Shown here piece after piece: positions 5,389-19,779 of a DNA stretch of 64,000 nt. Source of the stretch: Fundidesulfovibrio agrisoli (lineage in GTDB: Bacteria; Desulfobacterota; Desulfovibrionia; Desulfovibrionales; Desulfovibrionaceae); contig NZ_JAKZKX010000009.1 in the NCBI RefSeq assembly GCF_022808715.1, positions 62,001-126,000 on the forward strand, read 5' to 3'. Position 1 is the first letter of the stretch. Each line of letters starts with the position of its first letter. The notes below the pieces were generated by a model that had not been told where the DNA came from, searched no databases, and saw only the letters and a program-made list of their open reading frames with translations. The translations under genes and the position numbers were made by a program.

Positions 5389-6488
5389 GCCGTCTCCTCC
5401 GCCAGGCCAGCGTCGGGCTGCGGTTTGGTGCCGGGCAGGGTGGTGTCCACCTGGATGAACGCGGCGCGGTCGTTGACGTTCATCTCCTTGTACTGGGGGC
5501 ACTTGGCGCAGGTGGACATGGCGCTGGGCGTATTGATGGTGGCGCGCACCCTCTGGAACATCTCGTTGTTCCAGATGTCCTCCACGGACTCGGCGTTGAG
5601 GTCGCCCATGACGTCCTTGGAGAGCATGCACAGCCGCACCTTGCCGTCGGACTGCACGAAGATCTCCTCCCAGGGGCGGGGGCACTTCTTGTGCAGGGAT
5701 TCAACGGTCTCAAGCGCCGGCTTGCCGGAGAGGTCGAAGCGGTCGGGGATGGTCAGCTTGATGCCGTGGGCCTTGGCGCGGCGCTCGGCCTCGTCCAGCA
5801 CGGAGTTGGTGAGCTCCTTGTGGTCGAAGAGGATCTCGTCCACCATCTCCTGGCCGTAGGCGATCATGTGCACCATCTTGGCCTCGTCCATGCCCAAATT
5901 GGCGGCCAGGTCCACGAAGTCGGGGAACTCCTCCACGTTGGAGCGCATGCCCACGAAGACCATGCGCAGATAGGGGTGCTTCACCCCGAGTTTGCGCTTG
6001 CTGGCCACCACCTTGGCGATGTTGCCGATGACGGTGTCGAAGTCCGCGCCGCGCCGGATGCGGTTGTAGGTGGCGGCCTTGGCCCCATCCACCGAGAAGT
6101 TCAGGTAGGCCAGCCCCCCGGCCAGGAAGCGGTCGATCATCTCCTGCTTGAGGAGCATGGCGTTGGTGAGCACGAAGATGTCCGGCCCGCGCCGGGCCAG
6201 CTTGTCGAAGTAGCTGCCCAGGTGCTTGTTCATCAGGGGCTCGCCCCAGCCGAACAGCGAGGCGTCGTGCACGGTGTCCCAGTAGGGCTCGGTCCTGTCG
6301 AAGACTTCGGGTTGCAGGTCGCGGCCCACGAAGTCCCGGTGGGACTGGCCGCACATGGCGCAGCGCAGGTTGCAGCGGTTGGTGGTCTCAAAGACAAGGC
6401 GCTGCGGCTTGGAGGCCAGAATCGTGCGCTCCTGGGCGAGTTCGAGGTCGTTTAACGCCTTGTTGTCTATGGCGGATTGGCTCGGCAT
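5385..6488 (-). CDS. Radical SAM/SPASM-like protein
   Basis: Radical S-adenosylmethionine enzyme of 367 residues. The cluster-binding triad C-N-L-R-C-A-M-C (Cys39, Cys43, Cys46) is near the N-terminus, followed by a TIM-barrel-like region. Further cysteines at the C-terminus (K-K-C-P-R-P-W, then V-R-L-C-M and C-A-K-C) resemble a SPASM auxiliary cluster site. The start at 6488 has AGGAGG eight bases upstream, better than the longer frame to 6524. It is the first gene of the overlapped heptose cluster (stop overlaps the next start), so it may modify a sugar nucleotide or a cell-surface component, but the substrate cannot be read from the sequence. Confidence 0.8.
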   Translation of the reverse strand: MPSQSAIDNKALNDLELAQERTILASKPQRLVFETTNRCNLRCAMCGQSHRDFVGRDLQPEVFDRTEPYWDTVHDASLFGWGEPLMNKHLGSYFDKLARRGPDIFVLTNAMLLKQEMIDRFLAGGLAYLNFSVDGAKAATYNRIRRGADFDTVIGNIAKVVASKRKLGVKHPYLRMVFVGMRSNVEEFPDFVDLAANLGMDEAKMVHMIAYGQEMVDEILFDHKELTNSVLDEAERRAKAHGIKLTIPDRFDLSGKPALETVESLHKKCPRPWEEIFVQSDGKVRLCMLSKDVMGDLNAESVEDIWNNEMFQRVRATINTPSAMSTCAKCPQYKEMNVNDRAAFIQVDTTLPGTKPQPDAGLAEETA

Positions 6489-6545
6489 GGAAGATCCCTC
6501 CTGGCGGGAGGGGGATAGAAGCATCTTTTGCCCCTCAAGGCAAGA

Positions 6546-6578
6546 CCGGGGAGCCCGGGCGGCTCCGGCGCTCCCCGG
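6546..6578 (-). terminator. GC-rich hairpin after the NYN gene (weak terminator candidate)
   Basis: Nine-base-pair inverted repeat (6546-6554 with 6570-6578) between the NYN gene and the radical SAM operon. There is no T-run on either strand, so it may be a structured barrier or a factor-dependent end rather than a classical terminator. Confidence 0.35.
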
Positions 6579-6592
6579 CCTGTGCGGGCCTG

Positions 6593-7378
6593 CTAATAGA
6601 TGGGATCGCCGGGCATCTCCGGCGCGTCCTCGGTGAGCTCCTCGCCGAGGCCCTCGGCGCTCTCCACGGGCGCGGGCTGTTCGGGGGCCGCCGGGGCGGG
6701 CATGGAGACGATCCTGGCGCTGGGGGCGTAGGGCCGCTCCGGCGCGGGCAGGTTGAACTCCACCACGCCGTCGGAGTTGTCGCGCAGCTTGTCCGAAAGA
6801 TAGTAGCCGAACTTGGCCACGAAGACCAACATGCCGTGCTCGCGGGCGAAATTCATGGCCGGGATCATGTCCGCGTCGCCGGTGAGCAGCACGATCTTCT
6901 CCACCATGCGGCTGGCCGCGATCCAGGCGATGTCCAGGCCCATGAGCATGTCCACCTCCTTCTGCACCAGGTTGATGGACACGTCCTGGGGCTGAAGCGG
7001 GCGGTTGTGGCTCAGGGACTCCATGATGACGCGCATGTTCTTCTTGTTGAGCTTCCAGCCCTGCATGGCCAGGGAGCCCAGGCGCAGGGCCATGCGCGGC
7101 ATGCGCCAGAGCTGGTCGAGGTAGTCGTTCTTGATGCGGTACTGTTCGGTGGCGCTGAACTCGATCTCCCTCTGGGAGATGGGGTGCACCGCCTTGCCGC
7201 CGTAGGGCGGCGAATCATAGTAGTATGCCCTGAAAAACCTGTCCGATTCGAATTCCTTGTCCTGCATGATGAGTTCGCAAGCCGTCTTGACCGAATCCGC
7301 GCTGGGCGGCTGGCCCAGGCGGGCCTCCAGGTGCTTCATCCAGAAAAAGCTTCCATCGATGAGTATCGCCACGTTCAT
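6593..7378 (-). CDS. NYN-domain (DUF88/LabA-like) putative ribonuclease
   Basis: 261-residue cytoplasmic protein of the NYN/PIN-like nuclease family. The N-terminal motif A-I-L-I-D-G-S carries the first acidic metal ligand (Asp8). The middle has V-D-M-L-M-G-L-D and the later L-L-T-G-D-A-D carries the second pair of acidic residues, followed by the usual hydrophobic strand. The C-terminal 50 residues are rich in Pro, Ala and Glu and look disordered. Members are usually RNases, but no partner is evident. It is transcribed divergently from the phage adaptor gene, and the intervening 173 bases hold the palindromic operator described below. Confidence 0.75.
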   Translation of the reverse strand: MNVAILIDGSFFWMKHLEARLGQPPSADSVKTACELIMQDKEFESDRFFRAYYYDSPPYGGKAVHPISQREIEFSATEQYRIKNDYLDQLWRMPRMALRLGSLAMQGWKLNKKNMRVIMESLSHNRPLQPQDVSINLVQKEVDMLMGLDIAWIAASRMVEKIVLLTGDADMIPAMNFAREHGMLVFVAKFGYYLSDKLRDNSDGVVEFNLPAPERPYAPSARIVSMPAPAAPEQPAPVESAEGLGEELTEDAPEMPGDPIY

Positions 7379-7467
7379 TTGTCAATCTCCATCAAAGGTA
7401 TTGGGAATTACCGTTTAGTACCTCTCCCGACCCCCGTCAAAGGGATCGCATGAAAATTCATCACGCG

Positions 7468-7533
7468 TTCACTTTTTCCCCACATAGCCCCATGTGGGAT
7501 GCGCGAATCTCGAAATCGGGTATGGTTGCGCTT
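7468..7533 (+). promoter_or_regulatory. Palindromic operator and promoter region of the phage adaptor gene
   Basis: An inverted repeat CCCACAT-N6-ATGTGGG occupies 7479-7498. Twenty-two bases after it lies a possible -10 box TATGGT (7521-7526). The block from about 7471 to 7501 matches the block at about 12163-12193, upstream of the terminase gene, at nearly every position, and the distance from the palindrome to the candidate -10 is the same in both. With that -10 the palindrome is centred near -45, an activator-like position. Alternatively a weak TTCACT / CATGTG promoter (7468-7473, 7491-7496) would place it over the -10, a repressor-like position. The sequence alone does not decide. Confidence 0.6.
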
Positions 7534-7551
7534 CCCTGGCAGGGAGAATCA

Positions 7552-8163
7552 ATGACCATCGCAGACCTGATCGACAACACCCGGCTTGAACTCGGCGACG
7601 AACTCAAAACCCGCTGGAGCGACGCGCAGCTCCTGCGCGTGGTGGGCAAGGCCTACCGCAGGCTCTCCCACGTGCTCTACCGCAACGACATCGAGCTGGG
7701 GCGCAGCCTGTACCGCTTCACCACGGAGCCCGGCCGCGACGACTACCCCCTCCCGGCGGACTTCATGGCCGACTACGGCCTCTACCGCGAGGACACCACC
7801 ACCCGCCTGACCAAGCAGAGCGACGACTCCTGGCAGCAGCAGGGCACGCCCGCCGAGTGCTCCACCTGGCTGATCCGGGGCGAGACGCTGCTGGTGGGCG
7901 GCGCGCCCACGGGCTCGGTGCCGCTGACCCTGATCTACTGGCCGCTCTTCGACACCGCCACCCTGGACATGGACTCCCCCACGCCCTTCGGCGGCAAGCT
8001 CGACGACCTGGTCAGCGAGTACGCGGCCCTGCGGCTCAAGAACATCGACGAAATGGACATCGGCGCGGACACCCAACTCCTGGCCGACCTGGAGAACAAC
8101 CTGCTGAACACCTACTCCGCCATATCGCCCGTCACCGTGCAGCGGCGCGGCTGGCTGGTCTGA
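7552..8163 (+). CDS. Phage head-tail adaptor (connector) protein
   Basis: 203-residue protein resembling the gp4/gp6-type adaptors of tailed phages that join the portal ring to the tail. The N-terminus has the usual helix pattern (R-W-S-D-A-Q-L-L followed by K-A-Y-R-R-L). A middle F-T-T-E-P-G-R-D-D-Y-P-L-P box follows, as in many adaptors, then a beta-rich segment and a C-terminal helix. The start at 7552 has AGGGAGA five bases upstream; the longer frame to 7450 would run through the operator and is rejected. The gene stands alone: the next phage genes begin 4 kb away, with host genes between, and a strong hairpin follows its stop. This suggests a separately controlled, domesticated gene rather than part of a contiguous prophage. 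Confidence 0.75.
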   Translation: MTIADLIDNTRLELGDELKTRWSDAQLLRVVGKAYRRLSHVLYRNDIELGRSLYRFTTEPGRDDYPLPADFMADYGLYREDTTTRLTKQSDDSWQQQGTPAECSTWLIRGETLLVGGAPTGSVPLTLIYWPLFDTATLDMDSPTPFGGKLDDLVSEYAALRLKNIDEMDIGADTQLLADLENNLLNTYSAISPVTVQRRGWLV

Positions 8164-8181
8164 TGTAGGGGGCATGGAAAA

Positions 8182-8212
8182 GGCTGGCCCCGGGACGTTT
8201 CCGGGGCCGGCC
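8182..8212 (+). terminator. Strong hairpin after the adaptor gene
   Basis: Twelve-pair stem (8182-8193 with 8201-8212, one G-U pair, 7-base loop) starting 19 bases after the stop codon. It lacks a T-run, so it is called from stability and position only. It separates the adaptor unit from the permease promoter. Confidence 0.45.
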
Positions 8213-8442
8213 GCATCCCCCGGCCTGTCCGCTTTTCCAGACAAGCGGACCTCTTCGGTCCACAAGGTGCATAGCAATAACAATTTTGCCAAAACAAGCA
8301 CATCCGTTGTCCAGCGGGCCGGCTGAACAGAAACGCTACGTCTTGTTTTCCGTACCGGACTTGGCTGCGGGTTCTGCGCGCCGCGGCCCGATTCGCTTGC
8401 TATAGCATGGAAATGACGGATTATTTCCCTTCGTAACGGCTC

Positions 8443-8458
8443 TGGCACATGGGTTGCT
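8443..8458 (+). promoter_or_regulatory. Sigma-54 promoter upstream of the lactate permease
   Basis: TGGCAC-N5-TTGCT with the invariant GG and GC at the correct -24/-12 spacing; only one position departs from TGGCACG-N4-TTGCW. It lies 258 bases upstream of the permease start on the same strand. Sigma-54 control of lactate uptake fits what is known of lactate-utilisation operons in Desulfovibrio. Confidence 0.75.
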
Positions 8459-8715
8459 ACTTGCCCGGGCCACCGGCCCAGGCGTCGCGCCCGTCCGCTC
8501 TCGCGGACTGCGCCCGCCGGACGGAGACGACATGCCGGGAGCGCCCCACGGGCTCCAAAACCTCTGGTCCCTCCCCCGACATGCCCTGACGCAGGCACGG
8601 AGTTCCTTGTCACCATGCCGCAACCCGGCCCCGCGCCACGCTCTCCCGCGGATTTTTCCACGGGGCGCGCAGGGCCGCGCATGCGGCATAAATCATAATA
8701 GAGAAGGGAAACGTT

Positions 8716-11166
8716 GTGAGTTTGAAGTCAATCGCCTTTGGCCTTTTCCCGCTCCGCAAGGGGCTCCCCCGCACAACAGGAAATAATCGGCCCGCTCAGG
8801 GCGCGCGCGCCTTCCTCGCTTTGGCCGCCGCCCTGCTCGTGGCTGTTTCCCTCGGCCTGGCCGCTCCCGCCGGCGCCGCCGAAGAAGGCGCCCCCGGCGA
8901 CCCCTCCGCCCTGCCCGACAAGGGCGGCAACTGCGTGGCCCTGGTGGACAAGGCCCTGGCCTACCTCAAGGCCAACGGCCGGGAGAAGGCCCTGGCCGCC
9001 TTCAACAGCCCCGGCGGCGAGTTCGTGAAGGACGGCCTCTACGTGTTCGCCTACGACTTCTACGGCGTGAACAAGGCCCTGGCCACAAACCCCGCCCTGG
9101 TGGGCACCAACCTCATCGACGCCAAGGACGCCGAGGGCCGCGAGTTCATCAAGGACATGATCGGCCTCGTGCGCAAGGGCGGCGGCTGGTACGACTACAT
9201 CTGGGAGGGCCACGAGAAGACCTCCTACGTGGTCAAGGCCGACGACAACCTCTGGATCGGCTGCGGCGAGTACAAGAACGAGGCCGTGACCCTGGTGGAG
9301 AAGGCCCTGGCCTACATCAAGGCCGTGGGCAAGGAGAAGGCCCTGGCCGAGTTCAACAAGCCCACCGGCGCGTTCGTGGACCGCGGGCTCTACATCTTCG
9401 CCTACGACTACAACGGCGTGAACAAGTCCCTGGCCACCCACCACGAGCTGGTCGGCAAGGAGCTCCTGGACATGAAGGACCCCGACGGCAAGCCCTTCAT
9501 CCGGGAGATGATCGCCACCGTGAGCAAGGGCGGCGGCTGGGTGGACTACAAGTGGGACGGCTACGAGAAGTCCTCCTACGTGGTGCGGGTCGATGACGAC
9601 CTCTGGATCGGTTGCGGCGAGTTCCGCCACTCGGCGGCCAAGATGTACGGCCTGTTCGGGCTGGCCATCATCCCCATCGTCTGGCTGATGATCTCGCTGG
9701 GCGTGCTCAAGATGCCCGCCCACGTGGCCACCCTGCTCTCGCTGGGCATCACCGTGGCGCTGGCGCTGGCCGCCTTCCACATGCCCCTGCTCTGGGCGCT
9801 CACGGCCACGCTCGAAGGCGCGGCGCTGGGCGTATGGCCCATAGTGCTGGTCATCGTGGCGGCGATCTTCACGTACAACATGGCCCTGCACACCAAGAGC
9901 ATGGACACCATCAAGACCATGCTGGCCAACATCACCACAGACCGCCGCATCCAGGTGCTCATCCTGGCCTGGGGCTTCGGCGGCTTCCTGGAGGCCGTGG
10001 CGGGCTACGGCACGGCGGTGGCCATCCCGGCCTCCATCCTGGCGGCCCTTGGCTGCGACCCGCTGTTCGCCGCGCTCATCTGCCTGACCGCCAACACCGT
10101 GCCCACCGCCTTCGGGGCCATCGGCATCCCGGTGCTGACCCTGGCCCAGCTCACCAACCTGGACGTGAACATCCTGAGCTACCAGATCGCCCTGCAGCTC
10201 ACCCTGTTCATCGTCATCATCCCCATGCTGCTGGTGGTGCTCACCACGCGCAGCCTCAAGGGCTTGAAGGGCGTGGTCGGCATCTCCCTGGCCTCGGGCG
10301 CGGCCTTCGCCATCCCCGAGATGCTCGCCGCCAGGTTCCTGGGCGCGGAGCTCCCGGCCCTGGCGGGCAGCGTGTGCAGCATGGCCGTGACCATCTTCAT
10401 CGCCAAGAAGTTCTACAAGCAGGAGGGCGCCGAGGCGCAGGCCGGGCCATCCATCACCCTCAAGCAGGGCATCCTGGCCTGGCTGCCCTACATCCTGGTG
10501 CTGGCCTTCATCGTGGGCAGCAGCCCCGTGGTGGAGCCTGTGTACAAGGCCCTGGCCGCCGTGAAGACCTCGGTGACCATCTACCAGGGCAAGGGCGCCG
10601 CGCCCTTCGTGTTCAAGTGGATCGCCACCCCGGGCACGCTCATCATCATCGCCACGGTGATCGCCGGGCTGATCCAGGGCGCGAGGATTGCCGAGATCGT
10701 CTCGGTGTTCTTCATGACCGTGAAGAAGCTCTCCAAGTCGGCCTTCACGGTGCTGTGCATCGTGTCCATGTCCAAGGTGATGGCCTACAGCGGCATGATC
10801 TCGGCCATCGCCGTGGTGCTGGTGAAGGTGACGGGGCAGTTCTTCCCGATCATCTCCCCCATGATCGGCGCGCTGGGCACCTTCGTCACCGGCAGCGACA
10901 CCTCGGCCAACGTGCTCTTCGGCAAGCTGCAGGTGGAGGTCGCCTCCAAGACCGGCGTGGACCCCTACTGGCTGGCTGCCGCCAACACCGCTGGCGCAAC
11001 TGGCGGCAAGATGATCTCGCCCCAGAGCATCGCCGTGGCCACCGCCGCCACCGGCCTGGTGGGCTCGGAAGGCAAGATCCTGAACCAGACGCTCAAGTAC
11101 TGCATCGTGTACGTGGCGTTCCTGGGCGTGTTCGTCTACCTGGGAAGCCTGTTCCTCAAGGGCTAG
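8716..11166 (+). CDS. Tandem Cache-domain sensor fused to an L-lactate permease (LctP family)
   Basis: 816 residues. A hydrophobic signal/anchor segment (about 32-55, ending A-P-A-G-A-A) exports two tandem, clearly duplicated Cache-like sensor domains (about 70-195 and 196-308). Each contains F-A-Y-D-x-x-G-V-N-K, a G-G-G-W-x-D-Y-x-W turn and a D-x-L-W-I-G-C-G-E end. From about residue 310 the protein is an LctP-type permease: many hydrophobic helices, the L-E-A-V-A-G-Y-G-T-A-V-A-I-P motif, and a G-S-D-T-S-A-N-V-L-F-G box. LctP proteins import lactate, the main carbon source of these bacteria, and normally lack an external sensor. GTG start at 8716 follows GAGAAGGGA. Regulation is probably sigma-54 dependent. 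An extracytoplasmic ligand domain could gate or concentrate substrate, but that is inference. Confidence 0.85.
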   Translation: MSLKSIAFGLFPLRKGLPRTTGNNRPAQGARAFLALAAALLVAVSLGLAAPAGAAEEGAPGDPSALPDKGGNCVALVDKALAYLKANGREKALAAFNSPGGEFVKDGLYVFAYDFYGVNKALATNPALVGTNLIDAKDAEGREFIKDMIGLVRKGGGWYDYIWEGHEKTSYVVKADDNLWIGCGEYKNEAVTLVEKALAYIKAVGKEKALAEFNKPTGAFVDRGLYIFAYDYNGVNKSLATHHELVGKELLDMKDPDGKPFIREMIATVSKGGGWVDYKWDGYEKSSYVVRVDDDLWIGCGEFRHSAAKMYGLFGLAIIPIVWLMISLGVLKMPAHVATLLSLGITVALALAAFHMPLLWALTATLEGAALGVWPIVLVIVAAIFTYNMALHTKSMDTIKTMLANITTDRRIQVLILAWGFGGFLEAVAGYGTAVAIPASILAALGCDPLFAALICLTANTVPTAFGAIGIPVLTLAQLTNLDVNILSYQIALQLTLFIVIIPMLLVVLTTRSLKGLKGVVGISLASGAAFAIPEMLAARFLGAELPALAGSVCSMAVTIFIAKKFYKQEGAEAQAGPSITLKQGILAWLPYILVLAFIVGSSPVVEPVYKALAAVKTSVTIYQGKGAAPFVFKWIATPGTLIIIATVIAGLIQGARIAEIVSVFFMTVKKLSKSAFTVLCIVSMSKVMAYSGMISAIAVVLVKVTGQFFPIISPMIGALGTFVTGSDTSANVLFGKLQVEVASKTGVDPYWLAAANTAGATGGKMISPQSIAVATAATGLVGSEGKILNQTLKYCIVYVAFLGVFVYLGSLFLKG

Positions 11167-11501
11167 CAGCCCGTAACGACAATAACCGGCCGCGAAGCCC
11201 CGCTCGATGAGCGGACTCACTTCCGGAAGCCTCATCGGGGCCGCGTCCATCCGGGCGCGGCCCCTTTGCTTTTCTTCCGGTGCGCGTGGCTCCGGTGCCC
11301 CGACTGTTTTCGCAAATCCAGCAACTTCCAACGAACAGTCTGGCGGCACGATGCGGTTCGCAGCACCCAACCCGACAAATCCGGTCCGTATCTGCCGTAA
11401 TGCCGTTTGGAGCATGGCCATCCGATACCGGGCCATCCGCGTTGACCTTCGCACGCATCCGTGTGAAAGGGTGGGCGAACCTTTTGTACAGGAGTCCGCT
11501 C
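11167..11501. other. 335-base region between permease and secreted protein gene
   Basis: Contains the permease terminator (11237-11275). The remaining 226 bases up to the next gene show no conserved ORF, promoter or repeat that could be supported, although the frame is open upstream of the next gene. Confidence 0.5.
11237..11275 (+). terminator. Rho-independent terminator of the lactate permease gene
   Basis: Stem GGGGCCGCG/CGCGGCCCC (11237-11245 with 11256-11264, 10-base loop) followed by TTTGCTTTTC. It lies 70 bases after the permease stop. Confidence 0.8.
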
Positions 11502-11957
11502 ATGAAATTTCTTGTGATGCTGCTGTTTGCGCCCCTGCTCGCCCTGGCCTTCCTGTCCCAGCCAGTGAGCGTAAGCGCCTATGGCGACGATGATTACTAC
11601 CGGAACGGGAACAATTACTACAACGACCAGAACAGGTACGAACAGGAGCGCAGGCGCGAAGAGAGAGAGATGCGCCGCGAGGAGCGCAGGCTCGAGCGCG
11701 AGCGCGAGCGCGACGCCCGCAACTGGTACGACGAGCAGTGGCGTTGGCGCACGCAGCGCTATTTCGGGGGCTCCATCGCGCCCTACCCCGGCGAGAGCTA
11801 CGAGTCCTTCTCCAGGCGCGCCCGTCAGCAGTGCAACGCCCAGTGGAACCGCTGCGCCAACTACTGCAACACCATACGCGACCCCTACCAGCGCGCGGCC
11901 TGCGTGGCCAACTGCAACAACGACCTCTACGAGTGCAGCGCCCAGTTCCCGCGCTAG
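11502..11957 (+). CDS. Small secreted protein with charged helix and Cys-rich C-terminus
   Basis: 151 residues, function not recognised. Residues 1 to about 25 form a signal peptide. A Tyr/Asn/Asp-rich stretch follows, then a continuous run of Arg and Glu (about residues 47-72) predicted to be a long charged single helix or coiled coil, and finally a region with six cysteines (C-x6-C-x3-C, C-x3-C, C) likely to form disulfides in the periplasm. Start chosen at 11502 because CAGGAG lies eight bases upstream; the in-frame extension to 11280 crosses the intergenic region and has no such site. It sits between the permease and the terminase locus and shows no phage-like feature. Confidence 0.65.
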   Translation: MKFLVMLLFAPLLALAFLSQPVSVSAYGDDDYYRNGNNYYNDQNRYEQERRREEREMRREERRLERERERDARNWYDEQWRWRTQRYFGGSIAPYPGESYESFSRRARQQCNAQWNRCANYCNTIRDPYQRAACVANCNNDLYECSAQFPR

Positions 11958-12159
11958 CGTGCCCGCCCGAAACGGGCGACGCCGGATGATCCGGCGATAG
12001 CATTCCCCCTTCAGCCCCTCCCGGGGGCGAGCGCATCCAGGCGGAGGCCCCAGCGGCCTCCGCCAAGCCGCCCTCTCCGAACACCGCGCATAGACTCGCC
12101 GATACAGCCCCCTCTGGAGCGGGTTTCTGCCTCCGTCTCCTCCCGCAGGCCGACAATTT

Positions 12160-12220
12160 TCAACTTTCTCCCCACATAGCCCTATGTGGGGTGACGACGG
12201 CGCTTTCCTGAGTACACTGC
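12160..12220 (+). promoter_or_regulatory. Palindromic operator and promoter region of the terminase-portal operon
   Basis: Inverted repeat CCCCACATA-N4-TATGTGGGG (12170-12191), a more perfect version of the copy before the adaptor gene. The flanks are also shared: ACTTTnT lies before the palindrome in both. A possible -10 TACACT (12213-12218) starts 22 bases after the common ATGTGGG arm, exactly as in the other copy; it would leave a leader of only a few bases before the terminase ATG. The alternative weak promoter TTCAAC/TATGTG (12159-12164, 12183-12188) would place the palindrome on the -10. Confidence 0.65.
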
Positions 12221-12227
12221 CCGGTTC

Positions 12228-13538
12228 ATGGAAACCGACATCACCGTGCACACGGGCTACGCGCCGCACCGCTTCCAGCGCGAGATCCACGCCGGGCTCC
12301 GGCGTTTCTCCGTGCTGGTCTGCCACCGGCGCTTCGGCAAGACCGTGCTCTGCGTCAACGCGCTCATCGACGCCGCGCACCGCGACGGCCAGCCCGCCCA
12401 GCGCCTGGCCTACGTGGCCCCCACCCTGGTGCAGGCCAAGCGCGTGGCCTGGGACTACCTCAAGCGCTACGCCCTGGCCGTGCCCGGGGCCAAGGCCAGC
12501 GAGGCGGGCCTCTGCGTGGACTTCGAGAACGGCGCGCGCATCAGCCTCTACGGGGCGGACCAGCCCGACAGCCTGCGCGGAATCTACCTCGACGGCGCGG
12601 TCCTGGACGAATACGCCGACTTCCGGCCCGAGGCCTACTCCATGGTCATCCGGCCCGCCCTCTCGGACAGGCGCGGCTTCGCCGTGTTCATCGGCACCCC
12701 GCGCGGCCACAACCACTTCCACCAGCTCTACCATAACGCCCTGCGCGACCCGGCCTGGTACGCGGCCCGCTTCCCGGCCAGCGCCACGGGCCTGATCCCA
12801 GAGGAGGAGCTGGATTCCGCCCGCTCCCAGATGAGCCAGGCCCAGTTCCGCCAGGAGTACGAGTGCGACTTCGACGTCACCGGGGAGGATTGCCTCATCC
12901 CCCTGGCCTGCGTGCTGGACGCCGTGGGCCGCAACGTGGGCTACCGGCAGAGCGGGCTGGTCATGGGCCTGGACGTGGGGCTGTCGCTGGGCGGCGACCC
13001 CTCGGCCATCGTGGTGCGCCAGGGCGGCAAGGTCCTGCACATCGACGAGTTCCGACTGGACGACTCCCTGGCCGTGGCCGGGCGCGCCCGCGAATGCTTC
13101 GAGCTGATGCGCCCCGAGGCCCTCTACGTGGACAGCGTGGGCTGGGGCGCGGGCGCGGCGCACATCCTCTCCGGCTGGGGCCTGCCCGCCGTGGCCGTGA
13201 ACGTGGCCGAGGCCGCGGCCTCCTCCGAGCGCTTCAACCGCCGCCGCGACGAGCTGTGGTGGAAGGCCCGCGAATTCTTCGCCAGCCGCGCCGCCGCCAT
13301 CGACGACACCGTTCCCCTGGCCCACAAGCTGGCCGCCGAACTCTCGGCCCCGCGCTACGCCTACCTGCCCAACGGCAGGATCAAGGTGGAGGGCAAGGAC
13401 GAGCTGAAGCGGCGCGGCGTGCCCTCCCCCAACCTGGCCGACGCCTTCGTGCTGACCATGGCCCACGCCGACCGCTTCCAGGCGGCGGAAGAAACCTGCA
13501 ACCACGCGGAAGGCCCGGAGCCTTCCCGCTTCATCTAG
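12228..13538 (+). CDS. terL: Phage terminase large subunit
   Basis: 436-residue DNA-packaging motor. The ATPase half has a Walker A variant C-H-R-R-F-G-K-T (32-39), Walker B with catalytic acid G-A-V-L-D-E-Y (123-129) and a coupling motif I-G-T-P-R-G (155-160). The RNase H-like nuclease half shows Asp249 in G-L-D-V-G, an acidic Y-V-D-S-V-G-W strand near residue 300 and a final L-A-D-A-F-V-L-T helix near 420. All key residues are present, so it could be active. There is no ribosome-binding site before the ATG, which with the predicted promoter would give a near-leaderless mRNA. No small terminase gene is adjacent. The portal gene starts 8 bases after its stop. Intact packaging genes flanked by host genes argue for maintenance rather than decay. 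Confidence 0.92.
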   Translation: METDITVHTGYAPHRFQREIHAGLRRFSVLVCHRRFGKTVLCVNALIDAAHRDGQPAQRLAYVAPTLVQAKRVAWDYLKRYALAVPGAKASEAGLCVDFENGARISLYGADQPDSLRGIYLDGAVLDEYADFRPEAYSMVIRPALSDRRGFAVFIGTPRGHNHFHQLYHNALRDPAWYAARFPASATGLIPEEELDSARSQMSQAQFRQEYECDFDVTGEDCLIPLACVLDAVGRNVGYRQSGLVMGLDVGLSLGGDPSAIVVRQGGKVLHIDEFRLDDSLAVAGRARECFELMRPEALYVDSVGWGAGAAHILSGWGLPAVAVNVAEAAASSERFNRRRDELWWKAREFFASRAAAIDDTVPLAHKLAAELSAPRYAYLPNGRIKVEGKDELKRRGVPSPNLADAFVLTMAHADRFQAAEETCNHAEGPEPSRFI

Positions 13539-13546
13539 GAGACCCC

Positions 13547-15574
13547 ATGCCCATGACCGACAACGATCTGCTGGCCCTGATCCAGCCCGACATGGACGCG
13601 GCCCGCGCCTACCAGGCCGAGCTTTCGGCCGAGCGCGAGAAGCACTACCGCTGGTACCGCGCCGAACCCTACGGCAACGAACGCCCCGGCTGGTCCCAGA
13701 CCGTGCACCCCACCATCTTCTCGGTGGTGGAGTGGATGAAGCCCGGCCTGGTGGACGTGTTCACCGGCGAGTTCTTCACCTTCAACCCCGTGGTGCGCGG
13801 CGACAACCCCGAGGAGGCCAAACAGGCCCGCGACCGGGCCGACCGCCTGCGCCGCTACGTGCGCCACAAGCTCTTCGGACCCCTGGAAGGGGAGCAGCTC
13901 ATCGAGGACTTCATCCACGACTGCCTGGTGAACCACTACGGCGTGATGAAGGTCACCCAGCGCGACGACTACGACCTGACCACCGAGCTGCTGCCCGAGA
14001 TGGGCCTGGAGGAGCTGGAGGCCCTGGCCCAACAAGACACGAGCATCGTGGACATCCGGGGCGGCAAGTCCGTCACCCTGCGCGACCCGGCCACCGGCGG
14101 GGAGAGGCCCGGCCTGCGCGGGGCCAAGGCCGTGCGCCGCAAGAGCCTCTACCAGGGCTTCCACCTGGAGGTGGTGCCCCCGCGCGAGCTGTACATGCTG
14201 CCCGGCTACGCCGACCTGGCCAAGAACCCCTTCGTGGCCCACGTGGTCAGGCGCGACCTTGACTCCATCCGCCGCCAGGAGCTGGCCGGGGTCTACCGCA
14301 AGGGCAGCGCCGAGGCCCTGCGCGCCCGGGCGGACCAGCGCCGCAGCATGACCGAGACCGCCGGGGAGTACGCCACCCTGCACGAGGCGGACGGCATGAC
14401 GGCCCAGGGCGGCCCGGACGCGGCGACGCGCCTGGGGACGCCCGAGGTGTTCGTCTGGGAGTGCTACCTGCGCCTGCCCGTGGATGAGACCGGGCTGCTC
14501 AAGCCCTGCATCGTCACCGTCTGCGAGGACGTGATCCTGCGCGGACCAGTGGAGAACCCCTACGGAGGCCCGCCCTTCGAGCTGGGCTACGTCTACAAGG
14601 AGCCGCACAAGCTGCTGGGGCGGCCCGTTGCCGCCGTGCTGGACCACCGCCAGCGGGTGCTCTCCAACCTGCTGCGCAACATCCAGGACCAGGCCGCCAT
14701 GAGCACCTACCGGGGCTTCCTGACCACGGACGCCCGCGCCCGCAAGATCCTCTCCGGCATGGGGCCGGGCGACGTCTCCCTGGTGCCCTCCCTGGGCACC
14801 GTGCAGGAGCTGGCCCCCTCGCCCACGGACAAGTTCATCCTGGACGCCTTCCAGCTCACCCTGGAGGAGGTGGCCAAGGAGTCCGGGGTCAGCGCGGACA
14901 TGCAGGGCCTGGACAGCAACTCCCTGAACCACACCGCCCTGGGCATGCAGATGCGCTTAAGCGCCGGCATGCAGCGCCAGAAGCTCTACGCCAGGCGCAT
15001 CGCCCGGTCCTTCCGGCGCATCCTTGCGCGCGTGCTGGACGTGATCCGGCTCTACCCGCCCGAGGACGACCGGCGCGTGGTGGGCGCGGACGTGTTCGTC
15101 GAGCCCGGGGACCTGACCGGGGAGTACAGCGTGGCCATCGACGTGGGCGTGGGCCCGCAGGAGCGGCAGGACAGCGCCCGGCTCATGGACGAGCTGGTGC
15201 AGATGATGCTCAAGGCCGGGCTGCAACTGGGCGTGTGCGACGCCAGGGGGCTCATCAAGGCCATCAAGGCCAAGTACGAGTACCTGGACATCGACGTTTC
15301 GGAGTACCTGCGCGACGAGGCCTCCATGGACATGGTGGAGGGCCTCAAGCGCCGGGCCGACGGGCTGCTGCGCGACAACCAGGTCATGGCCAGGGCTCTG
15401 GGCAAGGGCGGCCCCGCTCCCGGGTCGCCCCTCGGAGCCGGGCCTGCTCCCGGCCCCGTTTCCGGCCCCGGAGTCGGCCCCATGCCCGGTTCCTTCCCCA
15501 GCCCCGGCCTGACGCCTCCCGGCGCCCCCCTGCCCCCCGACATGCCCTCCGGCCCCATGGGAGGCCCCCAGTGA
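13547..15574 (+). CDS. Phage portal protein
   Basis: 675-residue portal (head vertex ring) protein through which DNA enters the capsid, of the podophage type. Recognisable features are an N-terminal helix with E-K-H-Y-R-W-Y followed by the W-M-K-P-G-L-V-D-V-F-T segment, the wing region with E-V-V-P-P-R-E-L, and the stem/crown region with L-L-G-R-P-V and A-M-S-T-Y-R-G-F-L. The last 55 residues are an almost pure Pro/Gly/Ala/Met low-complexity tail, which is unusual. ATG at 13547 follows TAGGAGA; a second Met two codons on is possible. It is translationally linked to the terminase (8-base gap) and to the next small gene (GTGA overlap). Confidence 0.85.
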   Translation: MPMTDNDLLALIQPDMDAARAYQAELSAEREKHYRWYRAEPYGNERPGWSQTVHPTIFSVVEWMKPGLVDVFTGEFFTFNPVVRGDNPEEAKQARDRADRLRRYVRHKLFGPLEGEQLIEDFIHDCLVNHYGVMKVTQRDDYDLTTELLPEMGLEELEALAQQDTSIVDIRGGKSVTLRDPATGGERPGLRGAKAVRRKSLYQGFHLEVVPPRELYMLPGYADLAKNPFVAHVVRRDLDSIRRQELAGVYRKGSAEALRARADQRRSMTETAGEYATLHEADGMTAQGGPDAATRLGTPEVFVWECYLRLPVDETGLLKPCIVTVCEDVILRGPVENPYGGPPFELGYVYKEPHKLLGRPVAAVLDHRQRVLSNLLRNIQDQAAMSTYRGFLTTDARARKILSGMGPGDVSLVPSLGTVQELAPSPTDKFILDAFQLTLEEVAKESGVSADMQGLDSNSLNHTALGMQMRLSAGMQRQKLYARRIARSFRRILARVLDVIRLYPPEDDRRVVGADVFVEPGDLTGEYSVAIDVGVGPQERQDSARLMDELVQMMLKAGLQLGVCDARGLIKAIKAKYEYLDIDVSEYLRDEASMDMVEGLKRRADGLLRDNQVMARALGKGGPAPGSPLGAGPAPGPVSGPGVGPMPGSFPSPGLTPPGAPLPPDMPSGPMGGPQ

Positions 15575-15855
15575 ACCGGGAGGACCTGGAGCGCCAGGCC
15601 CTCCAAGGCGAGGAGGTGGCCCGCCTGCTGGAATGCGACGCCGTGCGCGTGCTGCTGGAAGGGCAGCTCTCGGCCCGCCGGGAGGCCATCCTGGCCCTGG
15701 ACCCCGGCGACGCCCCGGGCTTCACCCGGCTCAAAGCCGGGCTGGCCGCCCTGGAGGAGTTCCTGGCCGGGCTGCACAGCCTGGCCGCCGCCGGGGAGCA
15801 GGCCAGGGAACGGCTCGCTTCGGAGGCCAACGCCGGGAGAGGGAGGGTGCTGTAG
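15571..15855 (+). CDS. Small helical protein of the phage packaging operon
   Basis: 94 residues, not recognised. GTG start at 15571 overlaps the portal stop (GTGA) with GGGAGG upstream, so translation is coupled to the portal gene. The sequence is Leu/Ala/Glu-rich and predicted nearly all helical. Its place after a portal suggests a small virion or scaffold-related part, but nothing more can be supported. A 13-bp hairpin follows 20 bases later and closes the operon; no capsid gene follows. Confidence 0.6.
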   Translation: MNREDLERQALQGEEVARLLECDAVRVLLEGQLSARREAILALDPGDAPGFTRLKAGLAALEEFLAGLHSLAAAGEQARERLASEANAGRGRVL

Positions 15856-15875
15856 GGGGGGCACGGATTGCCCAG

Positions 15876-15905
15876 GCAATGGCCGGGGGCCGCCCCGGCC
15901 ATTGC
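15876..15905 (+). terminator. Perfect 13-bp hairpin closing the terminase-portal operon
   Basis: Inverted repeat 15876-15888 with 15893-15905, 4-base loop GCCG. No T-run follows. Like the hairpin after the adaptor gene it bounds a phage-type unit, and transcription of the next host gene must start after it. Confidence 0.5.
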
Positions 15906-16086: not shown

Positions 16087-18381
16087 ATGAGCGATCAGGA
16101 CGAAATCCGCACTCCCCTCTCCTCGCCCCACACTCCAGCCGGGGATCCCGCGGCGCATGAATCGGCTCTCGCCGGAATCGCCTGTCCTGACCCGGCCGAA
16201 CTCCTCGCCGCTGAAAGAGACCGTCTGGACGGGCTCCTGCGTCGCTCGAACAGGGCAGTTCGCGCCTACAGCGCCTGCTCCCGCCTGATCGTCAAGGCCT
16301 CGGACGAGACCCGGCTGCTGCGCGACATCTGCCGTCTCATGGTCGAGACCGCAGGATACCGGATGGCCTGGGTTGGAGTCCCTCTCAACGATCAACAGCG
16401 GAGCTTGGTCCCCATCGCCCAGGTCGGCATCGAGGACGGCTATCTGCAAAAGGCCAGAATCTCCTGGGGCGACAACGAATTCGGGCGCGGCCCCACCGGC
16501 ACGGCCGCACGTACGGGCAAGCCCATCGTCTGCCAAGACATCCAGACGGACCCCAACCTGCTCCCTTGGAGGGACGAGGCCGCCCGGCGCGGGTATGCGT
16601 CCTCCATCGCGCTGCCCCTGCTGCTCAAGGACGGGCTTGTCGGAGTGCTCACAGTCTATGCGGACGAACCCGACGCGTTCGAGCACGACGAATTCGACCT
16701 GCTGGTGGAGTTGGCCGGCACCCTGGCCTTCGGCATCGACTCCCTGCGCGCCCGCGTCGCCCGCAGGAACGCCGAACAGGCCCTGCTCGACAACGAGCGC
16801 AAGCTGCGGGCCCTGTACGAGTCGCTGGAGGAAGGCTTGTGCCTGCACGAGATCGTCTACGACGATGCAGGCCGCCCGTGCGACTACACCATCATCGACG
16901 TCAATCCCAAGTACGAGAAGATTCTCGGAATCACCCGCAAGGCTGCGGCGGGGGCTTCGGCCAAGGCCCTGTACGGCGCGGGGGAGCCCCCGTACCTCGA
17001 CATCTACGCCCGGGTGGCCGAAACCGGTGAACCCGTTTACTTCGAGACCTATTTCCCCCCGCTGGACCAGCACTTCAGAATATCGGCCTTCTCCCCCCAA
17101 AGGGGCCAGGTGGCCGTGCTCTTCAACGACATCTCCAAACGAAAAATGGCCGAGGAGGAGCTGAAGAGCTTGAACGAAACCCTGGAACTGCGTGTCCAGG
17201 AGCAGACCAGGGAGCTCAGGGCCGCCATGGAGGCCGCAACAGCCGCCAACAGGGCCAAGAGCGCGTTCCTGGCCAACATGAGCCACGAGATACGCACGCC
17301 CATGAACGGCATCCTCGGCATGACCCAACTGGCCCTGAAGCAGGAGCTGCCGGAGGAAGTGCGGGAGTTCCTGCTCCTGGTCCAGCGCTCGGGCCGGTCC
17401 CTGCTGGAAATCATCAACGACATCTTGGACATCTCAAGGATCGAGGCGGGCAAGGTCATCCTCGAGAACCGCCCCTTCAGCCTGCGCGAGTTGGTCGAAG
17501 CCACGCTCAAGCCCCTGGAGATCGCGGCGAGGGAGAAAGGGCTCGAGTTCCGGTGCACCGTCGATCCAGCCTTGCCGGACCTGCAGATGGGGGACGGGGG
17601 TCGGCTCCGGCAGGTACTGACCAACGTTGCGGGCAACGCCGTGAAGTTCACCGAGCGCGGATGCGTGGCCGTTTCGGTCGCCCCCGGCAAGGCCATGAAC
17701 CCGCAGAGGACCGGGCTGCTGTTCGCCGTCCGGGACGACGGCATCGGCATCCCCCAGGACTGCCTCTGCTCCATCTTCGAAAATTTCGAGCAAATCGACT
17801 CCCCGCTTCACGTCAAATACGGGGGCACCGGGCTCGGGCTGGCCATCTCCAAGGGCCTCGTGGAGATGATGGGCGGCGTCATCTGGGTCGAGAGCGAGTT
17901 GGGCAAGGGCAGCACGTTCTCCTTCCTGATCGAGCTGGACCGGATCGAGGAAGCCGCGGCCGTCGGCGGCAAGGCTGCGCAGGCCAGGGGGCCCAAACCC
18001 GGCCTGAGGGTGCTTCTGGCCGAAGACGACCCCATAAACCGCCTCTACGCGACGAAAACCCTGCAGCTCTGGGGGCACCATGTCGAGGCGGTAGAGAACG
18101 GACAACAGGCCCTCGAGGCGCTGCGGGCCGCGAGCTTCGACCTGGTGCTCATGGACGCGCTCATGCCCGAGCTGGACGGCGAACAGGCCACGCGGCTCAT
18201 CCGCTCCGGGCACGCGGGCGACCGGGACGTCTTCATCGTCGCCGTCACCGCCTACGCCCTTCAGGGGGACAGGGAGCGGTTCCTGGGCGCGGGCATGAAC
18301 GACTACATGTCCAAACCTTTCACCCACGAGGAATTGCAGGGCGTACTGCACAGGGCCACGGCCTGGACCCGGCGGCGCTGA
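16087..18381 (+). CDS. Hybrid sensor histidine kinase (GAF-PAS-HisKA-HATPase-REC)
   Basis: 764-residue soluble sensor kinase. A GAF-like domain (about 60-230) is followed by a PAS domain (about 250-350), a coiled-coil linker and HisKA with the phospho-acceptor box S-H-E-I-R-T-P (His near 400). The HATPase domain has N and G boxes ([22 protein letters not shown]), and a C-terminal receiver has the acidic pair A-E-D-D, phospho-Asp near 690 in V-L-M-D and the conserved Lys in S-K-P-F. No membrane segment, so the signal is cytoplasmic. ATG at 16087 follows GAGAGGA. No separate response regulator is adjacent; the receiver suggests a phosphorelay to an Hpt protein elsewhere. Confidence 0.9.
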
Positions 18382-18564
18382 ACGGCCCGCTCGGGGTGCC
18401 AGCCGCGTCCCCCCTCGCCAGCGTGACGCGTGCCGCCCGGCCGTGAATCGCCGCCCCACGGTTGACTTGATGTAAGAGATATGCACACATGCGACCACGG
18501 TGTTGGTCAGGAGTGCCTCTTCAGGCAATGTCCGTACAGGAAAACGGCTTGAAGGGAGAGTCTC

Positions 18565-19779
18565 ATGCTGCGCACCGGCACAACCCCTCGCTTTGCAATC
18601 CGAGCTATCGCACTTCTTGGCCTCCTGCTCTGCTTCTGCAGCACTTCCAATGCGTCCGGCGCTCCCCTGGCGTCGGCTTACAAACGCTTCATCGCCGCCG
18701 AGAACGCCTTCTCCCTGGCCTGCGACACCACCGGCGCCGCCTGGACCTGGGGCTGGAACAACTCCGGACAGATCGGCAGAGGCGTGAATCCCGACCAGCT
18801 CGTCCCCTACAAGATTCCGGGCCTCTCCGGCGTTGTCGCCGTCGCGGCCGGTTACAGCGCCTCCATGGCAGTCACCTCCGGCGGCTCGGTCTTCGGCTGG
18901 GGCCTCAACGGCAGCGGTCAGCTCGGCACCGGCGAGACCGGCAGCCACTGGTCGCCCGTGCCCACCGGGTTCACCAACATCAAAGCCGTTTCCATGTACA
19001 CCCACACCCTGGCCCTGGCCAAAGACGGCACGGTCTGGGTCAGCGGGGCCAACGGCAACGGGCAGTTGGGCCTCGGCACCACGGATAGCCGCAGCACCCC
19101 CGCGCAGATCCCCGGCCTCTCGGGCGTGCAGGCCGTGGAGGCGGGGATAGGCTTCTCCCTGGCGCTCAAGACCGACGGCACGGTCTGGGCCTGGGGCTAC
19201 AACTTCGCGGGCCAGCTGGGCCTGGGCGATACAGGCGACCGCTGGTCCCCGATCCAGATTCCCGGCCTTTCGGGCGTCGTGGCCATCAGCGCCATCGGTT
19301 CGCACTGCCTGGCCCTGGACAACCAGGGCGCGGTCTGGGCCTGGGGCCTGAACGACAACGGACAACTCGGCACGGGCGACACGTCGCCCCGGTATTCGCC
19401 GGTCAAGCTGAACGGCCTGCCCCCCATGCAGGCCGTGGCCACGGGCAACTACCACTCCATGGCCCTGGCGGCCGGGGGCGTGCCCTGGGCCTGGGGCGGC
19501 AACAGCGGGGGCCAGTTGGGCACGGGCGACTACAACAACCGGACGGTGCCGGTGCAGTCGCCCCCGGGCAAGTCCGGGTATGCCACTCTGACGGCCGGGG
19601 TGGGCCACTCCTTGGCCGTGGACAACGCGGGAGGCGTGTGGGCCTGGGGCACGAACGCCCACGGCTGCTTCGGCGACGGTGGCACAAATTCGAGCCCGTC
19701 GCCCGTGCGCACACTCTCGACGCTTCGCCTGCCCTCGCCCGGCTCGACGGCGGCGTCCATGCTGCTTCTGGGCAACTGA
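18565..19779 (+). CDS. Secreted RCC1-repeat beta-propeller protein
   Basis: 404 residues: an N-terminal signal peptide (about 1-30) followed by about seven RCC1/ATS1 repeats of 48-52 residues, each with W-x-W-G-x-N-x-x-G-Q-L-G and a following A-G-x-x-x-S-x-A-L strand. RCC1 repeats fold into a seven-bladed propeller used for protein binding; in bacteria such proteins are usually extracellular and of unknown partner. Start ATG 18565 follows GGGAGAG. The protein ends in A-A-S-M-L-L-L-G-N, a tail shared in style with the subtilase at 49721. It stands alone between a histidine kinase and a phosphatase on the same strand. Confidence 0.8.
   Translation: MLRTGTTPRFAIRAIALLGLLLCFCSTSNASGAPLASAYKRFIAAENAFSLACDTTGAAWTWGWNNSGQIGRGVNPDQLVPYKIPGLSGVVAVAAGYSASMAVTSGGSVFGWGLNGSGQLGTGETGSHWSPVPTGFTNIKAVSMYTHTLALAKDGTVWVSGANGNGQLGLGTTDSRSTPAQIPGLSGVQAVEAGIGFSLALKTDGTVWAWGYNFAGQLGLGDTGDRWSPIQIPGLSGVVAISAIGSHCLALDNQGAVWAWGLNDNGQLGTGDTSPRYSPVKLNGLPPMQAVATGNYHSMALAAGGVPWAWGGNSGGQLGTGDYNNRTVPVQSPPGKSGYATLTAGVGHSLAVDNAGGVWAWGTNAHGCFGDGGTNSSPSPVRTLSTLRLPSPGSTAASMLLLGN

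What the first reader, a model, noticed from the sequence alone, without database searches (positions are those of the whole stretch)
7468..15905. Dispersed, co-regulated phage packaging genes: a candidate domesticated phage or gene transfer agent regulon
An intact adaptor gene (7552-8163) and an intact terminase-portal-small gene operon (12228-15855) lie 4 kb apart with ordinary host genes between, no prophage regulators, capsid or lysis genes nearby, and no sign of decay in the catalytic motifs. Both units begin with nearly the same ~30-base control sequence and end in a strong hairpin. A decaying prophage should keep contiguous gene order and lose active-site residues. Separate transcription units with one shared operator look like selected, scattered host-controlled genes, as in gene transfer agents. 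Desulfovibrio desulfuricans is known to release a generalised-transducing particle (Dd1), and I am not aware of a settled gene set for it. The link to Dd1 is inference.
Basis: partly seen in the sequence, partly recalled or inferred. Interest (0 to 1): 0.88.

Follow-up and report, generated by a model that had tools for sequence, protein, structure and literature searches.

The report
Scattered phage-particle genes, one shared switch
This bacterium carries a nearly full set of short-tailed phage particle genes broken up over many places in its chromosome but wired to one shared promoter element, and the same element also drives duplicated scaffold genes paired with variable, partly cell-wall-attacking proteins, so it looks like a tamed phage that may deliver DNA, proteins or both to other cells.

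Summary
The two operators belong to a 20-bp palindrome, CCCACATAGNNCTATGTGGG, with 16 accepted copies in this genome and similar numbers in five of six congeners. Most sites share a -10 element at one fixed distance. Five units encode a P22/T7-type particle: TerL-portal, adaptor, scaffold-capsid, tail nozzle, tail fibre. The copies compared are open and under purifying selection. The sixth congener lacks portal, capsid and F1, has no operators above control, and its locus is clean. Related prophages keep these genes in one block. A host-fixed, dispersed, GTA-like viriform is well supported; a Dd1 link is not. The surprise is the other eleven units: paralogues of the phage scaffold (F1) with variable partners, and variable proteins alone. 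Cargo types in the genus include SLT transglycosylase, M23 endopeptidase and an eCIS-core (DUF4157) protein; some are followed by lipoprotein-like or exported proteins. My reading: scaffold paralogues load variable effectors into the capsid. Activation, loading, toxicity, immunity and DNA transfer are inferred; nothing was tested in cells, and the regulator is unknown.

The parts
7463..7498 (+). ACTTT flank plus 20-bp palindromic operator 1 (7479-7498), one mismatch
7521..7526 (+). -10-like element TATGGT at the conserved offset (operator positions 43-48)
7552..8163 (+). Head-tail adaptor, SU10 type (203 aa)
   Evidence: Pfam PF24175 1e-14; dN/dS 0.108 against G009
8182..8212 (+). Strong GC hairpin after the adaptor, no T-run
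12155..12190 (+). AATTTTCAACTTTCTC flank plus perfect palindromic operator 2 (12171-12190)
12213..12218 (+). -10-like element TACACT, preceded by TG at the conserved offset
12228..13538 (+). Terminase large subunit (436 aa), catalytic residues conserved
   Evidence: dN/dS 0.145 against G009
13547..15574 (+). Portal protein, SU10 type (675 aa)
   Evidence: Pfam PF23899 2.4e-77; PDB 9nwm, 7sxk; dN/dS 0.214 against G009
15571..15855 (+). 94-aa protein of unknown function; a short ORF (77-94 aa) sits in the same place after the portal in prophages (position only, homology not shown)
15876..15905 (+). Strong GC hairpin after the TerL-portal operon, no T-run

Best explanation
A short-tailed phage was domesticated in this genus. 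Its particle genes were split into five chromosomal units: adaptor; TerL-portal-94 aa; scaffold-capsid-127 aa; tail nozzle-373 aa; tail fibre and fibre-assembly genes. Each unit has the same promoter layout: a 20-bp palindrome centred near -44.5 (if the conserved TAnnnT is the -10 box) followed by that box (shown as sequence; activation is inferred). One unidentified regulator would fire all units together and build particles (inferred). Because TerL looks intact and no homologue of a prophage gene in small-terminase position was found, the particles may package DNA without strong sequence choice, as GTAs do (inferred). The same promoter also drives a changing set of other units: paralogues of the scaffold (F1), each followed by a variable protein, and variable proteins without F1. 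I infer that F1 paralogues enter the procapsid through a shared C-terminal helix pair and bring the partner in, and that the particle ejects these proteins (wall hydrolases, a DUF4157-type protein, Gly-rich, possibly membrane-active proteins) into the target. Exported or lipoprotein-like genes after some cargos would protect the producer.
For: Operators: 17 at up to 3 mismatches (control 2), 16 after dropping one inside a gene; 13-19 in five congeners (controls 0-2); 1 (control 3) in G075, which lacks portal, capsid and F1. TGnnTAnnnT at one offset in 55 of 90 sites, at no other offset 3 or more times. By a script's classification, with three TerL units set by hand, exactly five core units in each of G000, G009, G050, G094 and G106. 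Capsid found by homology as second gene after an operator. Nozzle model matches P22 gp10 (2e-12) and T7 tails. dN/dS against G009 0.02-0.35 for seven core genes. F1 is homologous to the gene in scaffold position of three independent phage-type loci. 36 of 45 F1 profile matches in five genomes start within 1 kb downstream of an operator, in the right direction. F1 model: helical, C-terminal helices 267-282 and 290-298. Cargo: M23 1.6e-19, eCIS_core 2.3e-5, SLT 3.4e-8. One N-terminal tag on nine Gly-rich cargos and three SLT-cargo ORFs, on nothing else among 9022 ORFs.
Against: No expression, particle, DNA-transfer or toxicity data. Regulator unknown; the LuxR-type guess failed. Lysis genes were not searched for. 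F1 homology was not detected in the other phage-type loci (G148, G093, L130, L131). The F1 model has low confidence (pLDDT 60.5), no significant BFVD match (best E 0.02; PDB fold search not run) and no PDB profile match. Most cargo families have no Pfam match. Against the more distant congeners, dN/dS of core genes is 0.21-0.61, above the one host gene (0.17-0.18); the scaffold gives 0.565 already against G009. Capsid ORFs run off contig ends in G050 and G094, one G094 piece has a TGA, none was found in G118 (66% complete). 14 of 90 units have an unclear first gene. Three cargo units of the own genome look interrupted (L017, L025, L027). F7 and F6 homologues lie beside a contiguous prophage in G094, so that pair may be ordinary phage content. 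Tree support 42-65 at inner nodes.
Confidence: 0.62

Rival explanations
1. A plain gene transfer agent. The particle transfers host DNA; the variable proteins are interchangeable ejection proteins that replace two large proteins of the ancestral phage and open the recipient envelope (SLT, M23, Gly-rich segments). They are not weapons.
For: Homologues of the G094 prophage's 833- and 709-aa proteins, which lie between nozzle and fibre genes, were not found in G000, G009, G106 or G118 at E <= 1e-3, and only as a 96-residue stretch in G050 (2.1e-5). SLT domains are common in podovirus ejection proteins (recalled). Packaging, head and tail genes are kept.
Against: One particle should need one set of ejection proteins; instead several units per genome pair a scaffold paralogue with different partners. 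F6 lipoprotein-like arrays (four in G009) after F7 look like immunity arrays.
Confidence: 0.25
2. A protein-delivery particle that no longer transfers useful DNA; packaging genes persist only because they are needed to build or fill the head.
For: 11 of 16 units of the own genome are scaffold-paralogue or cargo units.
Against: TerL keeps its conserved residues and dN/dS 0.145 against G009, which suggests that DNA packaging matters.
Confidence: 0.08
3. Remnants of one decaying, rearranged prophage; the shared operators are leftover phage promoters.
For: Phage origin of the structural genes; several cargo units look interrupted; capsid and portal of G094 may be damaged.
Against: Core ORFs compared (2 to 6 genomes per gene) have no internal stop; five core units in each of five species; fixed promoter layout over 90 sites; similar tree backbones.
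Confidence: 0.04

Closest known systems
Gene transfer agents (RcGTA, CcGTA, BaGTA; viriforms)
   Same: Phage-derived particle genes fixed in the chromosome at several loci. RcGTA genes lie at five loci (PMC9662315, passage); CcGTA has direct activators GafY and GafZ (PMC11150451, abstract).
   Different: Here 16 units, each with its own copy of one palindromic promoter element; a short P22/T7-type tail; a scaffold-paralogue and cargo expansion. DNA transfer is untested.
SU10/LUZ24/P22-type short-tailed phages and the contiguous prophage-type loci of G094:C1, G148, G093, G128
   Same: TerL, portal, capsid, adaptor and nozzle are homologous.
   Different: There the genes form one block. Cultured phages are distant: portal 22-26% and capsid 32-34% identity in the 15 and 10 rows listed.
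MuF polymorphic toxins of temperate phages (PMC5576092; abstract and discussion read)
   Same: Idea of variable effectors carried in a phage head and delivered to competitors.
   Different: No MuF domain among Pfam hits of the proteins scanned. The carrier here would be a scaffold paralogue and a cargo tag, in a chromosomally fixed particle.
Extracellular contractile injection systems (eCIS; PMC8213781, passages)
   Same: eCIS_core/DUF4157 domain (in G106 F7), which in eCIS travels with toxins; a domesticated phage structure that carries proteins.
   Different: The carrier here would be a head with a short tail. Contractile sheath and baseplate genes were not seen among Pfam hits of unit genes, but were not searched for in the genome.
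P22 scaffolding protein
   Same: 303 aa, C-terminal helix-turn-helix at 268-303, essential for assembly (PMC9962691, passage); F1 of G118 has 300 aa with predicted helices at 267-282 and 290-298. Engineered cargo loading through the P22 scaffold is recalled.
   Different: Here a natural multi-copy family; no sequence match to a scaffold family in Pfam or the PDB.
Dd1 GTA of Desulfovibrio desulfuricans
   Same: Same bacterial family, going by the name of the one congener that a tool gave.
   Different: A small terminase gene next to its terL is predicted (Ddes_0720); homology of this set to that locus was not tested.

Membership tests
Gene transfer agent (criteria of PMC9662315, passages) | Uses proteins of tailed-phage ancestry | tested here: met
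   (particles themselves not seen)
Gene transfer agent (criteria of PMC9662315, passages) | Encapsidates mostly random host DNA | not testable with these tools
   needs sequencing of DNase-protected DNA
Gene transfer agent (criteria of PMC9662315, passages) | Genome fixed in the host, often at several loci | tested here: met
   16 operator units on 10 contigs of the own genome; dispersed operators in five congeners
Gene transfer agent (criteria of PMC9662315, passages) | Own genome cannot be packaged whole | not testable with these tools
   scattering over the chromosome makes it likely; head size unknown
Gene transfer agent (criteria of PMC9662315, passages) | Vertical inheritance, co-diversification with host | tested here: inconclusive
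   same backbone in a 2-gene host tree (7 taxa) and a 4-protein particle tree (6 taxa plus outgroup), inner support 42-65; one congener lacks the system
Gene transfer agent (criteria of PMC9662315, passages) | Packaged DNA is delivered to other cells | not testable with these tools
   none
MuF toxin | MuF domain in the carrier protein | tested here: not met
   not among Pfam hits of the unit proteins scanned; not every unit protein was scanned
Polymorphic toxin system | Shared N-terminal trafficking region with exchangeable C-terminal domains | tested here: met
   for one tag only: its HMM hits its nine Gly-rich training cargos and three SLT-cargo ORFs; other cargo families do not carry it
Polymorphic toxin system | Cargo is toxic and a neighbouring gene gives immunity | not testable with these tools
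   only lipoprotein-like or exported proteins after F7 and M23 cargo
eCIS | Contractile sheath, tube and baseplate | not tested
   no genome search was made for them
Active prophage | Contiguous particle genes | tested here: not met
   one portal and one capsid homologue at E <= 1e-3 in the own genome, on different contigs; integrase and repressor genes were not searched

The most novel reading that the evidence does not exclude
A bacterial genus has turned a phage into a co-regulated, chromosomally dispersed particle whose scaffold gene multiplied into loaders, each bringing its own effector into the capsid: a head-loaded, polymorphic effector delivery system, perhaps delivering DNA as well, with periplasmic or membrane immunity proteins in the producer.
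Probability: 0.38. Interest if true: 0.93.

Novelty: new variant of a known kind. Interest (0 to 1): 0.85.

Why it matters
If only the domesticated-particle part is right, this is a GTA-like viriform of unusual dispersal (16 units under one promoter element), built on a short-tailed phage, in a family where the one reported GTA is poorly characterised. The operator gives a sequence handle for finding its regulator. If the cargo reading is also right, it is a natural way to fill a phage head with chosen proteins by duplicating the scaffold gene, which would link gene transfer agents, polymorphic toxins and protein-delivery nanomachines. It could be tested directly in any cultivable member of the genus.

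Tried and rejected
LuxR-type autoinducer regulator: PF03472 is in G000, G009, G106 and in G075 (no system) but not in G050, G094, G118, so it does not track the system. Operator in viral contigs: none. Perfect operator in the species-genome collection: 10 stretches, 9 in one congeneric MAG and 1 in Haloterrigena (taken as chance); records near the window's genome may be left out, so the count is a floor. Capsid in viral contigs by a single protein: no relative confirmed; the nozzle alignment found four. The gene in small-terminase position of the G094 prophage: no homologue in the dispersed genomes (best 0.263, in the own genome). The first gene finder miscalled strands and was replaced.

Rows dropped or not seen: the operator in L029 (3 mismatches, inside a gene). 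Of 96 matches in the six carriers, 92 were used (G118 11 of 14, G106 18 of 19, the others complete), 91 had enough flank, 90 remained without L029. Site orientation was fitted on the same flanks that the -10 count uses, which can inflate it; the fitted directions agree with the core genes. One search lists many 25-35% matches between antisense or shadow ORFs of high-GC genes; these were ignored. In one search neighbouring units overlap, so some F1 genes are counted twice; counts are used instead. In one search the G009 lactate permease row used wrong ends and is not used; the G094 portal (612 aa, shorter) and contig-end capsids were left out there.

Literature searches (PMC open-access only; titles and starts of abstracts seen). 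Nothing listed describes this regulon or scaffold-cargo units; 51 and 71 returned nothing; subscription papers and preprints were not covered.
Full report
What was checked. The window holds an open SU10-type adaptor (7552-8163) and a TerL-portal-94 aa operon (12228-15855), with a lactate permease and a small ORF between. Both phage units are preceded by the same 20-bp palindrome: CCCACATAGCCCCATGTGGG at 7479-7498 and CCCACATAGCCCTATGTGGG at 12171-12190; shuffled windows give none. GC-rich hairpins follow both units but have no T-run.

A genome-wide regulon. The own genome (G000, 3.94 Mb, 52 contigs) has 17 operator matches at up to 3 mismatches against 2 for the reversed control. One of the 17 lies inside a gene and was dropped, leaving 16 on 10 contigs. 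In the genus (7 genomes), five others have 13-19 copies with controls of 0-2; G075 has 1 with a control of 3. G075 is also the one congener without the portal; it has no F1 and no capsid (the incomplete G118 has no capsid match either). At the syntenic place in G075 the gene matching window 6593-7378 is followed by the one matching 19866-21182; adaptor, permease, TerL-portal and the kinase gene are not there. The perfect operator was found in 10 stretches of the species-genome collection, 9 of them in one MAG, 'Desulfovibrionaceae bacterium X3_MetaBAT.36', which I take to be G118 because a contig length agrees (92,737 bases). No viral contig has it.

Promoter anatomy. 92 of 96 sites in the six carriers were oriented by their own flanks. 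Read towards the genes, 91 of them show a T-rich AACTTTCTC-type flank, the palindrome, then TG at positions 39-40 and TAnnnT at 43-48 counted from the operator start. Of 90 sites without L029, 55 have TGnnTAnnnT exactly there and no other offset reaches 3; 67 have TAnnnT there; in the own genome 15 of 16 do. If that is the -10 box, the palindrome is centred at about -44.5, a usual place for an activator. That a protein activates there is inference.

Five core units. By a script's classification (three TerL units set by hand) each of G000, G009, G050, G094 and G106 has exactly five core units, and G118, incomplete and only partly fetched, has 3: adaptor; TerL-portal; scaffold-capsid; nozzle; tail fibre. 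The capsid was found by searching with the capsid of a contiguous prophage-type locus (phrog_1328, 2.5e-79): 40% identity, on contig C3, second gene after an operator. It matches PDB 9ny2 (7.6e-37) and 7z45, a major head protein (1.8e-14) (the related entry 7z4b is titled 'Bacteriophage SU10 virion'). In G050 and G094 the capsid ORF runs off a contig end, and a second G094 piece has a TGA. The nozzle model (AlphaFold, pLDDT 64.7) matches P22 gp10 (2e-12) and T7 tails in the PDB. The tail unit has a Collar domain and a tail assembly protein, with fibre-type PHROG matches for it and for prophage homologues. dN/dS against G009 is 0.145 (TerL), 0.214 (portal), 0.108 (adaptor), 0.021 (capsid), 0.278 (nozzle), 0.338 (373 aa), 0.351 (collar), 0.565 (scaffold); one host gene gives 0.161. 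Against the more distant congeners the core genes give 0.21-0.61 and that host gene 0.17-0.18 (a simple Nei-Gojobori estimate). So the core is under purifying selection but evolves faster than that host gene. TerL HRRFGKT is kept in the six congeneric copies, and E128, D249, D302, D405 in all 10 aligned.

Origin. In prophage-type loci of G148, G093, G128 and G094:C1, and in viral contigs L128-L131, detected homologues of these genes lie in one block in the order TerL-portal-(scaffold position)-capsid-adaptor-nozzle (not every contig yielded every gene). Viral contig L129 is the G094:C1 prophage itself (100% identity for three proteins), so G094 holds both a contiguous prophage and the dispersed set. 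That prophage's 833- and 709-aa proteins have no convincing homologue in the other carriers; the best is a 96-residue stretch in G050, 2.1e-5. Its gene in small-terminase position has none. Cultured phages are distant: portal 22-26%, capsid 32-34% in the rows listed. A 2-gene host tree and a 4-protein particle tree share the backbone (G000,G009), G050, ((G094,G118),G106), with inner support of 42-65; G075 falls beside G050 with support 49.

The unexpected part. Eleven of 16 units in the own genome are not core: five start with F1 (one of them cut short) and six with other cargo families. F1 is homologous to the gene in scaffold position of G128 (5e-8), of the G094:C1 prophage (7e-7; 3.4e-8 as L129) and of viral contig L128 (6.5e-8); it was not detected in G148, G093, L130 or L131. 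One F1 copy sits directly upstream of the capsid gene. A 15-row profile finds F1 in 7 of 149 genomes of the family: 5, 7, 11, 11, 11 and 6 matches in G000, G009, G050, G094, G106 and G118 (fragments and the G094 prophage copy included) and 1 in G128. In five carriers 36 of 45 matches begin within 1 kb downstream of an operator in the right direction; the nine others include the prophage copy, a second copy in one unit and fragments. The F1 model is helical with two C-terminal helices at 267-282 and 290-298 but of low confidence (60.5), with no significant BFVD match. P22 scaffold has 303 aa and a C-terminal helix-turn-helix at 268-303 (PMC9962691, passage). The likeness is suggestive, not proof.

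Cargo. Partners differ from unit to unit. Profile matches: SLT in the own genome (3.4e-8); Peptidase_M23 in G106 (1.6e-19), eCIS_core/DUF4157 in the G106 F7 (2.3e-5, above cut-off), CHAP in G009 (0.0026, below cut-off); most others have none. The own-genome F7 lacks the HExxH seen in the G106 copy (by eye). An HMM of the N-terminal tag of nine Gly-rich cargos finds, among 9022 six-frame ORFs, those nine and three SLT-cargo ORFs (1.1e-5, 1.7e-5, 0.0026) and nothing else at E up to 1. F6 proteins follow F7 in G000, G009 (four in tandem), G050 and G094, not in the G106 unit; by eye 7 of 8 have a hydrophobic N-terminus ending in cysteine, while the scripted lipobox test flagged 3 of 8 at its first-ranked start. 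F55 after M23-type cargo has a signal-like start in both copies. In G009 two F2 cargo units carry a copy of the TerL promoter including its start codon, and in G094 the scaffold promoter is present three times. I read this as new cargo units arising by local duplication.

How it most likely works. Shown: a shared promoter element, mostly open particle genes, an F1 family related to the phage scaffold gene, variable partners. Inferred: one activator, particle formation, DNA packaging, loading of cargo by F1, ejection into target cells, immunity by exported neighbours. The plainest rival is a GTA with interchangeable ejection proteins.

Literature. GTA criteria are from PMC9662315 (passages). 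PMC11841831 (passages) notes that GTAs are often spread over several loci and that those outside the alphaproteobacteria have had only cursory study. PMC6854486 (passages) predicts Ddes_0720 as a GTA small terminase. MuF toxins (PMC5576092, abstract and discussion) and eCIS DUF4157 (PMC8213781, passages) are the nearest precedents for the cargo. The passages seen of PMC12946183 and PMC6006170 do not describe it. Nine PMC searches listed no description.

Noticed in passing
L054 (G094:C1) 17644-19209: F7 and F6 homologues, found elsewhere in operator units, lie beside a contiguous prophage's terminase, and a portal-like fragment lies nearby at C1:21036 (54% over 76 residues); no operator at up to 3 mismatches. 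Possibly the entry route of this cargo pair.
   Followed up: partly
G050 contigs C4, C8, C12, C16, C26, C29, C31: Seven contigs have an operator within about 5 kb of a contig end, as if the unit sequences are repeated enough to break the assembly.
   Followed up: no
L049 (G009) 11891, 13393, 15713; L091 (G094) 6111, 7472, 8901: Near-identical copies of a core promoter, in G009 with the TerL start codon, stand before cargo units: a footprint of how new units may arise.
   Followed up: partly
L017 9582 and L102 6800: The own genome keeps an operator with only the start of an F1 gene, while G009 has a 208-aa F1 there: loss of units seems to be ongoing.
   Followed up: partly
L073 (G106) 5726-6645: Tag and SLT domain of one cargo copy lie in different open frames, next to a copy with both in one frame (8125-9030).
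   Followed up: no
L067 (G106) 6738 and 6805; L075 (G050) 7055 and 7224: Pairs of divergent operators between an F1-type gene and an M23-type cargo gene.
   Followed up: no
L022 15917-17992: A Peptidase M1-like gene follows the nozzle unit in G000, G009, G094 and G106; taken as host, not tested.
   Followed up: no
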